Notes under the pieces: generated by a model | Told to the model about the DNA's origin: nothing | What the model saw: the letters and a program-made list of their open reading frames with translations, nothing else | Databases searched by the model: none | Position numbers and translations under genes: made by a program | Part shown: positions 24,174-40,010 of the stretch, in pieces | Position numbering within the stretch: the first letter of the stretch is position 1 | Layout of the letters: every line of letters starts with the position of its first letter | Source: Malacoplasma penetrans HF-2 | Lineage (GTDB): Bacteria > Bacillota_I > Bacilli_A > Mycoplasmatales > Mycoplasmoidaceae | DNA length: 64,000 bases | NCBI RefSeq assembly: GCF_000011225.1 | Contig: NC_004432.1 | Location: 496,001 to 560,000 of the forward strand | Direction of reading: 5' to 3'

Positions 24174-24534
24174 TGGTTAATGATAGTTGGTTGCTATAAG
24201 TTTCTTATAGAGGAAAGTCCATGCTAGCACTATCTGAGATGATAGTAGTGTTTGTTGCAGGTATATAAAAAATAAAACCTGGAAGATTTACTCTTACGAC
24301 ACAACAAAACCTAAAATGGTTGCATTATGGTTGAGTTGTATAAAGTGCCACAGAGACGAGCAAAGAAGAAATTCTTGATATGAAACGCGGTAAACTCCAC
24401 AAGCTAGAAACCTAAATTTGGTAAGGGAACTGGTTATAAAAGAATTCAATTTTATAAACGGAAGAATGTATGTTCTTAGATAAATAACCAACGTCTAGAT
24501 AATAGATACAGAACATGGCTTATTTCATTGACTT
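24174..24534 (+). ncRNA. rnpB: RNase P RNA (type B-like)
   Basis: The conserved blocks are present in order: GAGGAAAGTCCATGC (P4 5' strand region) near 24213, ACAGAGACGAG near 24350, GAAACGCGGTAAACTCC near 24382 and the 3' ACAGAACATGGCTTA near 24508 that pairs with the 5' P4 strand. GTTAATGA (24176-24183) pairs with TCATTGAC (24525-24532) to close P1. The ribozyme removes tRNA 5' leaders. The ends are set by P1 and are good to a few nucleotides. The minus-strand ORF across it is a shadow. Confidence 0.95.
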
Positions 24535-35023: not shown

Positions 35024-36304
<1,281 letters not shown>

Positions 36305-36387
36305 AGTAGAAACTTTTATTATAATATCAAATTTTAAAAATTCTCAAAAAAATTTCAAAATTTTAATAATTTAATATTTTTTTACCT

Positions 36388-36393
36388 TATAAT
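36388..36393 (+). promoter_or_regulatory. -10 box of the candidate structured RNA
   Basis: TATAAT in a T-rich context, 5-7 nt before the first stem-loop of the proposed RNA. Confidence 0.5.
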
Positions 36394-36397
36394 ATTA

Positions 36398-36935
36398 ATA
36401 GTGGGTTGTCTCCACTATAATAAAAGACTTAAATTGACTTTTTCTTATTTATATTATTATTAATGTAATAATTGATAGATAATTTTATTTTTTTATTAAA
36501 TTTTAATTCTTATACTTTTTTATATTAAAGTATGTATGTTTCTCAATCATAGAGTTTTTTAAAATTTCTTTTATGATTTGTTATTAAATTGTATTAATAA
36601 CCTCCTTTCTGTTAAAAATTTTATACACATATTATCGTGTACGTTTGATTAAGACATTTAAGTCTTTTTCTAATCATATATAAATTCTTTTTATTATTTT
36701 TTTTCTATAATATCTTTTATATTTCGTCCTAAGATATTTGTTTTTGTTCCTTTGTTATTTTTATTTTTTATCTTTTTTTAAAGAATTTCTCATATATATT
36801 AGATTTGTTTTTCTGTTTGTGGTTTTTCTCCTTAGAATAATAAAAATAGAGTTATACGATATATATAATTAAAAGTCGCGGTTTATTGAATAAATAAAAC
36901 ACCCGGGTTCCTCTTGGGTGTTTTATTTTTTATAT
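36398..36935 (+). ncRNA. Candidate structured non-coding RNA, about 535 nt
   Basis: No ORF of note on either strand. Downstream of a TATAAT there is a chain of stem-loops: ATAGTGG/CCACTAT (36398-36418), ATTATTA/TAATAAT (36456-36472), ATACTTT/AAAGTAT (36512-36533), AATCATA/TATGATT (36545-36578), TTATTAA/TTAATAA (36581-36600), TACAC/GTGTA (36624-36641), a bulged stem with AAGAC/GTCTT inside TGATTA/TAATCA (36646-36676), and AATATCTT/AAGATATT (36709-36738). It ends in a strong 12-bp terminator (36893-36935). ACCTCCTTTCT (36600-36610), identical to the 3' end of bacterial 16S rRNA, and TTCTCCTT (36826-36833) are unpaired and complementary to Shine-Dalgarno sites. It does not match tmRNA, SRP RNA or 6S RNA as I know them. 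Transcription is not proven. Confidence 0.5.
36893..36935. terminator. Strong terminator closing the candidate RNA
   Basis: AATAAAACACCC and GGGTGTTTTATT form a perfect 12-bp stem with an 11-nt loop, followed by a T-rich tract. The symmetry would allow some activity in both directions. Confidence 0.9.
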
Positions 36936-37073
36936 AAATAAATTATTGATTTATGTCAGTATTTAAGTTTTTAGAAAATACTAATTTTTAGTGAAAAAAA
37001 TATAAATTTACAATTTATTTATATAAAATATAGACTATATTAATTTTTGTATAAATATTTAAAATAACTAACT

Positions 37074-40010
37074 ATGATCAAGAATAAAAAAGATAAAATA
37101 TTTAAAATATTATCTTTTTCACTCCTTGCAAGCATGGTAGCTATTCCTTTAGCTTCTTGTAATTACAACAGTACATCTTTTAATAATCAAGTTGATGAAA
37201 CACCATCAAAAGATTTTAATGATGTAAACCAAAACAACTCTAATTCTTCTAATCAGAATAATAAAGAAGAATTAGACATTCAAGTTGTTAACTCTAAAAA
37301 AGTAGATAGCAGTTTACAAATAAATTTAACTAGTAGTAATAATTATGGACTAGAACAAAATTATTTAGATTTTGCTGACAATGGATCTTTTAACCAATTT
37401 AATGGAAACAGTAGCTTTGTAGAAAAAGACATCTTAGGTTATTTACATAGTTTGTATTATTCAAACAATGAATCAGTTTCTATTACTAATGTTAATTTAA
37501 GTAATTTAAAAGTTAATGCACCTGATAATAAGATAGTTTTTAATGAGTCTGAAATTAGCTTTAGTTTATCAGCAGAAATAAGTGCTAAGAAATTAACTAA
37601 CTTCATAATTGAAAACCAAACTTTTACATTGTCTCAAAATCACCATTATTCTTTAAACATTGAAGTTGTAGATCAATTAATAAAACCATCTATTCAAAAA
37701 TATAATAATAATTTTTATTTAGCTTGAATGGTAGAAAAAGCTACAGTTACTTTTAATAATCAAAGTTTTGAAATAAGTAATTTTGTTATTACTAAGAATT
37801 CTTTTTCTCAATCTTTCTATGTTCAGTTTGATAACCTATCAGATCAACAAACTTACTTTGATTTAAAAAATAAATATGAAACAGAGTTTAAAGAAAATTT
37901 AAGTCAAAACAATGTTAAAGAATTAGTAGAACAAAAAATAGAAAATGATACTTCATTTTATTTTTACATTGTAGATGTTGCTAACACTTTAGTTAAAGAA
38001 ATTGCTAAAGATGAACCAATCAATAAAATCATTCAAAATGCTACTAATTATTTATTAGACATATTAGTAAAACTTAACATTATTCCTAGTGAATTTGAAA
38101 GTATTTTAAAAGAAGCTCTTGTAGTTAATAGTGATGGAACTGCAAGCAATACAACTCTTTTAGAAGTTCTTTATAAAAACAAATCACAATTAATGAGCTT
38201 ACTAAAAAAATATCTAGGTACAGCATATGACATTGTTTATCCAATGATTGAAAATTTAGAACTTAATATGGATGAAAACAATGCAAGTTATAAAGTTATT
38301 TTAAATTACATAAATAGTATTAATAATCCACAACTAAAAAGTCTAATTACAGGAGACTTATTAGGTGTAACTTCGTCAGCTAAAAGTTTATGACAAATTG
38401 TTTGAGATAATTTTGATTTTATAATTTCTCAAGTTAAAGGATTAGCAAATAATAATGCTACTCTTAATTCAGTATTGAACTTAATATCTATTATTTTTAA
38501 AAAAGATGCTACTAATGGAAACTTTAGTTCTATCTATGATTCAATCCTTGCAAATGACACTAATAAAACAAATTTTACTAATGCTTTAGTTGGATTATTA
38601 CCAAGTGGTGTTTCAGAATATATAAAAATATTAGTTTCAGATAATACTGACTTCAATAAAGAAAACCTATTAAAAATAGTTACATCTATTTCTAATACTT
38701 TAAATGGATTATTTGAATATGCAGACAATGCTACAATTGATACTCCATACTATGAAAGATATAAAAATATTACTTTTACTAGAAGTTGAGTAAAAGATGT
38801 TTCAGTTGATACTACAAATTCACCTACAACTTCTTTTGAATATAAAGTTAGTTTTACATTTAACAGTGAAGTAACTTTAGATTTAGCAGTTATTAAAAGC
38901 TTAGTTAATCAAACTGTCTTTAATTCTTTAGTGGATAAATTAACTGGAATAAATAGAGATGCTTTAGTGAAATTAGTTGAGGATGAGGTTTCAAATGTTA
39001 AATTTGCTGGTTCAAAAGTTAATTTAGTAACACCTGCAGCAACTATGATTGATAATGAGCTTGCAAATATTAAAAAATATTTATTAGACTATGTTCCTGA
39101 CTCAATAAAAATTGGCACATCAGGAAATGAATTCTCATTAACATATACTGCTGATAATGATCAAATTTGATTTAATCCAAATAAAAAAGGATCTAATTAT
39201 TATTTAGGATTTAGTGTAGGGTACGATTTAAATATTTCTTACAATGATGTGGGAATGGTAAATTCTATTGTTAATAAGTATGCAGTGGGTGATGTTAATT
39301 ACCAATCAAAATATAAAGTTAAATGAACAGTTTTAACATTAGAAGCAATTTATTTTGACTATACATTGAATTATTACAATTTTTGAAAACCAATAATTCA
39401 AAACATATTCTTTAAAGATTACACTTATTCATCAAGGTTTTTCTTATCTGATTATAGTCAAGAGATTGCAACAACAAATAACTATAATGAAAATTATTAT
39501 TATACAAATTTAACATTTGAAAATAAGTCGAATTCTGTTTCTATTGATGATATAAAAAATCTAATTACTAAAGAAGATAATAATAGAAATAATTCTGTTA
39601 ATTGAAATGGAACTACAGAAAATACTAATGGTATTAATTTAACTTTAAGTGAAGATAACAAAAAACAATTATTTTCAAAAATGTTTGATGTTAGTTCAGA
39701 CAATAATAATTTAACTAATTCAAATTTTAGTAGTTATTATGATTTTCAATTTGATTCACATTTAGACTTTTCTACTACTTTAAGTTTTAATTTAGTTGCT
39801 AGAGGGCATGTAAAAATAAATTATGGATTTAGCAAATATACATGAGATAAAGAATTCCAAAGAGTTAATTTAAATGTTAATTTAAGTGCATCATTATATA
39901 ATTCAAAAATTTACTTCCCCATTAACTTCTATGATTCAACAAATAAAAAACTTGTTACTTCTTATACAAAAAACTACACAAGTTTTAATGTTGCTACTAC
40001 TAATAGTTAA
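37074..40010 (+). CDS. Large lipoprotein, paralogue of the 24708 gene
   Basis: 978 residues, TAA at 40008. The N-terminus is a lipoprotein signal: basic MIKNKKDKIFK, hydrophobic ILSFSLLASMVAIPLA, then lipobox LASC with the Cys at about residue 29. A short Asn/Gln/Ser-rich linker follows, then a body without a recognised domain. NNNFYLAW followed by TVTFNNQSFEI (about 37705-37775) aligns with the equivalent segment in the 24708 protein. It is probably anchored on the outer membrane face. No clear RBS. It starts 64 nt after a clear AT-rich promoter-like stretch near 37010-37060. Confidence 0.88.

What the first reader, a model, noticed from the sequence alone, without database searches (positions are those of the whole stretch)
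36388..36935. Possible new structured RNA with eight stem-loops and anti-Shine-Dalgarno motifs
Seen: TATAAT, then eight perfect or near-perfect hairpins in about 350 nt, then a strong terminator, in a 769-bp gene-free stretch. Two unpaired pyrimidine motifs (ACCTCCTTTCT, identical to the 16S rRNA 3' tail, and TTCTCCTT) could pair with ribosome binding sites. Inference: a regulatory RNA titrating or blocking Shine-Dalgarno sites. Read on the minus strand the same motifs are strong RBS without ORFs, which argues for the plus strand.
Basis: partly seen in the sequence, partly recalled or inferred. Interest (0 to 1): 0.7.

Follow-up and report, generated by a model that had tools for sequence, protein, structure and literature searches.

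The report
Large structured RNA with anti-Shine-Dalgarno sites
Next to the serS gene of a mycoplasma and some of its relatives lies an undescribed RNA gene of about 500 bases whose ends pair with each other and whose interior shows copies of the ribosome's mRNA-binding sequence, so it probably switches off mRNAs by covering their ribosome-binding sites.

Summary
The intergenic stretch 36305-37073 holds a stand-alone RNA gene of about 530 nt: TATAAT (36388), 5' hairpin (36400-36416), terminator (36892-36928). Genome length fits Malacoplasma penetrans HF-2 (recalled). Orthologues follow serS in three other genus members (G001, G004, G009); G007 holds a cut copy. The real structure is different: two long-range helices close the RNA. 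P2 pairs 36479-36492 with 36842-36855 in three species (14 pairs after one hand-moved gap, 9 as aligned; shuffles at most 9), with a compensatory change and G-U pairs that point to the plus strand. P1 recurs with other letters in G009. The interior exposes ACCUCCUUUCU, an 11-nt copy of the genome's own 16S tail (0 of 2000 shuffles), plus conserved GUUCCUUUG and UCUCCUU sites, all mostly unpaired. No Rfam match, no ORF, no Hfq. Best explanation: a trans-acting RNA that masks Shine-Dalgarno sequences, like staphylococcal RNAIII but unrelated. Targets are unknown: no pairing was conserved between species. Expression is untested.

The parts
36388..36393 (+). -10 box TATAAT of the RNA gene; start of transcription inferred at about 36400
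   Evidence: Sequence; same spacing to the 5' hairpin in G001, G004, G009
36400..36416 (+). P0, hairpin at the 5' end, GUGG/CCAC stem, loop with UGUCU
   Evidence: GUGG/CCAC kept in pen, G001, G004, G009; the stem itself never varies
36436..36454 (+). P1, 5' arm of the outer closing helix
   Evidence: pair probability up to 0.88 in pen, 0.99 in G001; compensatory pair 36436:36877 (G-C to A-U)
36479..36492 (+). P2, 5' arm of the inner closing helix
   Evidence: pairs with 36842-36855 in three species
36600..36610 (+). anti-Shine-Dalgarno site 1, ACCUCCUUUCU, copy of the 16S tail; CUCCUUUCU invariant in three species
   Evidence: mean unpaired probability 0.75 against 0.45 for the whole RNA
36741..36762 (+). 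invariant 22-nt block UUUUUGUUCCUUUGUUAUUUUU with anti-Shine-Dalgarno-like site GUUCCUUUG (36746-36754)
   Evidence: GUUCCUUUG unpaired 0.85
36811..36833 (+). conserved block UUCUGUUUGUGGUUU.UCUCCUU (one variable column) with anti-Shine-Dalgarno site UCUCCUU
   Evidence: UUCUCCUU unpaired 0.72
36842..36855 (+). P2, 3' arm
36861..36877 (+). P1, 3' arm
36892..36928 (+). intrinsic terminator, followed by a T run

Best explanation
The stretch 36400-36935 is an undescribed RNA gene with its own promoter and terminator. Shown by computation: the plus-strand RNA has a 5' hairpin, two long-range helices (P1, P2) that bring its ends together, and a U-rich branched interior in which several pyrimidine sites stay unpaired. 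One of these sites is an 11-nt copy of the 3' tail of the organism's 16S rRNA. Inferred: the RNA acts in trans by pairing these sites with Shine-Dalgarno sequences, so that the 30S subunit cannot bind, much as RNAIII of Staphylococcus does, and without Hfq. Several sites in one molecule could serve several mRNAs or strengthen binding to one. That it is a real plus-strand RNA gene I put at about 0.9; that it works by masking Shine-Dalgarno sites at about 0.55.
For: RNA gene: the same order of promoter, 5' hairpin, closing helix and terminator follows serS in pen, G001, G004 and G009, although the gene downstream differs (lipoprotein-like in pen, nadD in G001 and G004). P2: 14 consecutive pairs possible in pen, G001 and G004, against at most 7 in 200 column shuffles and at most 9 in 200 block shuffles, with U-A to G-C at one pair. 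P2 holds 2, 4 and 3 G-U pairs in the three species, which cannot form on the minus strand (longest shared helix there is 8). P1: G009 cognate energy -23.0 against -6.8 to -12.8 for arms swapped with pen, G001 or G004; shuffled 5' arms reach the cognate energy in 0, 1 and 1 of 100 for G009, G001 and G004. Anti-Shine-Dalgarno: 11-nt and 10-nt tail copies, shuffle P 0.000, 0.001 and 0.005 of 2000 in pen, G001 and G004; 4 of 5 UCC triplets lie in invariant columns against 26% of all triplets. The main sites are mostly unpaired (0.72-0.87 in pen, G001 and G004, RNA mean 0.45-0.47). Shine-Dalgarno sequences are used here: 214 of 297 sampled genes have energy of -4 or lower, against 41 of 262 internal Met codons. 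The pen RNA prefers gene starts to internal sites more than 25 of 25 shuffles. No ATG ORF of 12 or more codons in four species.
Against: No expression data. As MAFFT placed one gap, the shared P2 helix is 9 pairs, reached by 3 of 200 block shuffles; 14 needs that gap moved by hand. In pen P1 is no better than shuffles (25 of 100) and P2 has a mean pair probability of only 0.21. In G009 the tail matches (longest 8 nt) are not above shuffles (P 0.12). In G004 the preference for gene starts is reached by 3 of 25 shuffles. Predicted pairing energies of 88 orthologous gene pairs do not correlate (rho 0.12, P 0.28). Of triplets with two G or C other than UCC, 17 of 42 are invariant too, so 4 of 5 is only suggestive. 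A third site of the tail type in G004 (UCCUCCUUU) is mostly paired (unpaired 0.30).
Confidence: 0.55

Rival explanations
1. A structured RNA that binds a protein or works as a scaffold or sponge; the invariant U-rich blocks are protein sites and the likeness to the 16S tail is a side effect of pyrimidine-rich sequence.
For: The longest invariant blocks (22 and 15 nt) are U-rich and longer than a Shine-Dalgarno match needs; no conserved mRNA partner was found.
Against: The 11-nt tail copy in pen is not reached by 2000 shuffles of the same dinucleotide content, and CCTCCTTTCT is rare in the genome (4 places).
Confidence: 0.22
2. A regulator with one main target through extended antisense, for example the glpF leader: in G004 the invariant GUUCCUUUGUUAUUUU block and its neighbours are complementary to the glpF ribosome-binding site.
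For: 22-nt complementarity, best of 268 sampled G004 gene starts at -31.8; best BLAST match of the G004 RNA outside itself in its genome (E 4.4e-7); the same leader in G007.
Against: glpF of G001 and of pen lacks the pairing although the RNA block is invariant (pen only -13.5); 1 of 25 shuffled RNAs has a best start energy lower than -31.8.
Confidence: 0.1
3. A cis element: a leader with attenuator for the downstream gene, or a 3' UTR of serS.
For: It lies between serS and the next gene on the same strand.
Against: Own -10 box directly before a conserved 5' hairpin, strong terminator about 145 nt before the next start codon, and unrelated genes downstream in different species.
Confidence: 0.07
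4. No RNA at all: AT-rich intergenic DNA in which hairpins and pyrimidine runs arise by chance.
For: Hairpin number at shuffle level and weak folding energy on the plus strand.
Against: Conserved blocks, synteny, shared P2 helix and P1 recurrence; a sequence model of the 3' part finds the three known loci far above everything else.
Confidence: 0.05

Closest known systems
RNAIII of Staphylococcus aureus (length of 514 nt and long-range closing helices recalled)
   Same: About 500 nt, ends joined by long-range pairing (recalled for RNAIII), unpaired pyrimidine motifs that mask Shine-Dalgarno sequences (passages of PMC2837412)
   Different: No Rfam match, no encoded peptide, the motif copies the 16S tail (ACCUCCUUUCU) and is not a UCCC loop; likeness only in way of working
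LhrC of Listeria monocytogenes
   Same: Several redundant CU-rich sites in one RNA, each able to recognise the target, covering a Shine-Dalgarno sequence; Hfq not needed (passages of PMC4132741)
   Different: LhrC is 111-114 nt in five copies; this is one gene of about 530 nt with long-range closing helices
Predicted sRNAs of Mycoplasma hyopneumoniae, M. flocculare and M. hyorhinis
   Same: Trans-encoded RNAs proposed in Mollicutes (abstract and outline of PMC5088518)
   Different: Other species; I did not compare sequences; the present RNA has cross-species structure evidence

Membership tests
RNAIII (Rfam) | Match to the Rfam covariance model | tested here: not met
   No RNAIII match at gathering score in the window nor up to E 5 on 36300-37073
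RNAIII (Rfam) | Encodes delta-haemolysin within the RNA (recalled) | tested here: not met
   No ATG ORF of 12 codons or more in the RNA of four species
Trans-acting RNAs that mask Shine-Dalgarno sequences | Independent transcript | not testable with these tools
   Promoter-like box and terminator present, no expression data
Trans-acting RNAs that mask Shine-Dalgarno sequences | Accessible pyrimidine motif complementary to Shine-Dalgarno sequences | tested here: met
   (accessibility by computation)
Trans-acting RNAs that mask Shine-Dalgarno sequences | Pairing with a target mRNA, conserved between species | tested here: inconclusive
   No conserved target among 88 orthologous pairs of a sample; glpF pairing in G004 and G007 only
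Structured non-coding RNA gene | Helices kept by compensatory change between species | tested here: met
   P1 and P2; few sequences, one gap moved by hand
Any family of Rfam 15 | Score above the family's gathering score | tested here: not met

The most novel reading that the evidence does not exclude
A decoy of the 16S rRNA tail: the RNA presents near-perfect copies of the anti-Shine-Dalgarno sequence in several places of one scaffold, so that it competes with 30S subunits for all strong Shine-Dalgarno sequences and sets translation genome-wide, in a genus without Hfq.
Probability: 0.12. Interest if true: 0.8.

Novelty: new variant of a known kind. Interest (0 to 1): 0.52.

Why it matters
Post-transcriptional control in Mollicutes is poorly known, and the genomes of this genus searched here show no Hfq. 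A conserved RNA of about 500 nt that carries the ribosome's own anti-Shine-Dalgarno sequence would be a concrete candidate for such control, testable with simple reporters, and would show an RNAIII-like design arisen apart from RNAIII.

Tried and rejected
Known RNA families: none (the three weak matches cover the terminator end). tRNA or tmRNA: none. Eight hairpins as the defining feature: count at shuffle level. G003 candidate (L074), found by the 5' hairpin pattern: rejected as orthologue, no P1 (cognate -3.0, 0 pairs above 0.3) and another neighbourhood. Pattern matches in other genera of the family (L070, L071, L077-L080): L071 and L078-L080 were read, L070 and L077 judged from the matched letters alone (tRNA-like); none taken as relatives. 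Gaps after serS in 22 loci of other genera (those whose loci one search returned): none with the 5' hairpin. In the genus, G003, G005 and G008 lack it after serS; G006 runs into a contig end; G002 and G007 had no serS match. Sequence model R1 gave pen, G001 and G004 clearly and G007's cut copy at E 0.09; the G008 match (E 0.005) lies antisense inside a coding sequence and was dropped; its 15-mer is exact in pen, G001 and G004 only in the RNA itself. Exact-pattern scans of two public collections gave, beyond G004 and G001, two unrelated genome records and two viral contigs, taken as chance and not examined. Gapped duplex energies were of no use for this U-rich RNA; I used ungapped helices. The 33-nt likeness at G000:C1:1092548 lies downstream of a membrane-protein gene and remains unexplained. 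A pairing of AAAAGAC with the region behind the terminator hairpin, proposed by the alignment fold, is broken in pen and was not used. I did not look for pairing with rRNA.

Full report
What is there. The window is a stretch of a low-GC mycoplasma genome of 1,358,633 bases, a size I recall for Malacoplasma (Mycoplasma) penetrans HF-2; its genes read through with TGA as Trp. The finding lies in 769 bases without a gene, between serS (35024-36304) and a lipoprotein-like gene (37074-40010), both on the plus strand. I call this species pen. There is a TATAAT at 36388, a terminator at 36892-36928 (1 found, 0.1 expected), and no ORF with ATG of 12 codons or more in between. Rfam has no match in the window apart from RNase P at 24179, nor in the orthologous loci.

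Counting perfect stems of at least 6 pairs gives 4 in pen, 4 in G001, 2 in G004, 4 in G009 and 5 in G003, none above dinucleotide shuffles. Folding energy of the whole transcript is better than shuffles (z -4.1), but without the terminator z is -1.9 in pen (2 of 60 shuffles as good), -3.2 in G001, -1.2 in G004, -1.7 in G009 and -2.8 in G003; on the minus strand pen has -4.8 and the others -0.7, 0.1, 0.0 and -1.4. So the row of hairpins is not the evidence for an RNA.

Orthologues. BLAST found collinear pieces in G001:C78 and G004:C3 (E 5e-16 to 3e-9), both right after serS, followed by nadD (nadD named from the protein, recalled). With G004 as query the full RNA aligns in G001 (81%, E 1e-139), and its last 91 bases at the end of a contig in G007 (100%). 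A pattern of TATAAT plus GUGG-loop-CCAC matched 11 of 95 genomes of the family, 5 of 10 in the genus: pen, G001, G004, G009 and G003. G009 carries it after serS too, with a terminator about 560 bases on. G003 carries it elsewhere and lacks the closing helix; I leave it out. In the genus serS was found in 8 of 10 genomes; the RNA follows it in 4 of these 8.

Long-range helices. In pen, G001, G004 and G009 the segment just after the 5' hairpin pairs with the segment just before the terminator (P1). Arms swapped between G009 and the other three are far weaker than the cognate arms (-6.8 to -12.8 against -23.0), which is what covariation predicts. Against shuffled 5' arms the cognate energy is reached in 0 of 100 (G009), 1 of 100 (G001), 1 of 100 (G004) and 25 of 100 (pen); so pen on its own is not convincing. 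P2 lies inside P1: AUAAUUUUAUUUUU / AAAAAUAGAGUUAU in pen, GUAAUUUUAGUUUU / AAGACUAGAGUUAU in G001, GUAAUUUUAGUUUU / AAAACUAGAGUUAU in G004. One pair changes on both sides (U-A to G-C). The shared helix is 14 pairs if the single pen gap beside the 3' arm is moved out of the arm, and 9 as MAFFT placed it; column shuffles reach at most 7 and block shuffles at most 9, the latter 9 in 3 of 200. The helix holds 2, 4 and 3 G-U pairs in pen, G001 and G004, which would be A-C on the other strand, and the longest helix shared by the three minus strands is 8. This is the best evidence for the plus strand. The ensemble probability of P2 is 0.94 in G001, 0.87 in G004 but 0.21 in pen.

Anti-Shine-Dalgarno sites. 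The 16S gene of this genome ends GGATCACCTCCTTTCTAACGG. The RNA copies ACCUCCUUUCU. Among 2000 dinucleotide shuffles per species the longest tail match is reached in none for pen (11 nt), with P 0.001 for G001 (10 nt), 0.005 for G004 (10 nt), 0.12 for G009 (8 nt) and 0.13 for G003 (7 nt); the number of sites is not significant in any. CCTCCTTTCT occurs four times in the pen genome: in the 16S gene, in this RNA, antisense to the ribosome-binding site of an atpB-like gene (name recalled from the protein), and in a coding sequence. In the three-way alignment the invariant blocks with G or C are UGUCUCCAC, GUUAUUAAAUU followed by CUCCUUUCU, UUUUUGUUCCUUUGUUAUUUUU, UUCUGUUUGUGGUUU, UCUCCUU, AAAAGAC, AAGAAUU and the 3' arm of P2. 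Four of five UCC triplets are invariant, against 26% of all triplets, but also against 17 of 42 other triplets with two G or C, so this is suggestive only. The three main sites have a mean unpaired probability of 0.72-0.87 in pen, G001 and G004, RNA mean 0.45-0.47.

Targets. Shine-Dalgarno sequences are in use: in a sample of 297 pen genes 214 have a pairing energy of -4 or lower, against 41 of 262 internal Met codons; starts were chosen partly by this energy, which inflates the contrast. The pen RNA prefers gene starts over internal sites more than 25 of 25 shuffled RNAs; for G004 3 of 25 shuffles do as well. The best G004 target among 268 is the glpF-like leader, with 22 nt of full complementarity at an invariant block. 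Pen and G001 glpF leaders do not pair in this way. Energies of 88 orthologous pairs do not correlate (rho 0.12), while Shine-Dalgarno strength does (0.58). So a conserved target is not shown; the sample covers about a third of pen and about two fifths of G004.

Reading. I take this as a new family of structured RNA in at least four lineages of the genus, probably acting in trans on ribosome-binding sites. It works like RNAIII and LhrC as described in the passages I read (PMC2837412; PMC4132741) but fails membership in RNAIII. Hfq is absent in 10 of 10 genomes of the genus while the control finds it in 5 of 14 known genomes. The searches of the paper library listed nothing on this RNA; of the listed papers I read passages of two and the abstract and outline of one.

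Noticed in passing
L079:1500-1870 and L080:1500-1860 (genomes G103 and G109, genus g7): Another unknown RNA-gene-like unit of about 350 nt: TATAAT, 5' hairpin GUGG..CCAC, stretches alike in both and a terminator, downstream of a sigma-factor-like gene; no Rfam match.
   Followed up: no
L038 (G004:C18) and L035 (G007:C18): The leader of a GlpF-like aquaporin gene is complementary over 22 nt (G004) to the RNA at its GUUCCUUUGUUAUUUU block.
   Followed up: yes
L023:549-581 (G000:C1:1092548-1092580): 33 nt downstream of a membrane-protein gene are complementary to 36730-36762 of the RNA with one mismatch and one wobble; best match of that segment in the genome outside itself.
   Followed up: partly
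L125, L132, L133, L142: A repeated transposase-like gene (MFYTTITLNDTNKYRHLSYGEREII...) whose ribosome-binding site CACAAAGGAACACC is complementary over 10 nt to the conserved GUUCCUUUG block.
   Followed up: no
window 36400-36885, minus strand: In pen the minus strand folds better than its shuffles (z -4.8) while the orthologues' minus strands do not; unexplained.
   Followed up: no
window 24179-24526: RNase P RNA class B, plus strand.
   Followed up: no
window 37074-40010: A lipoprotein-like gene of 978 aa stands after the RNA in pen where G001 and G004 have nadD, which suggests a rearrangement next to the RNA gene.
   Followed up: no
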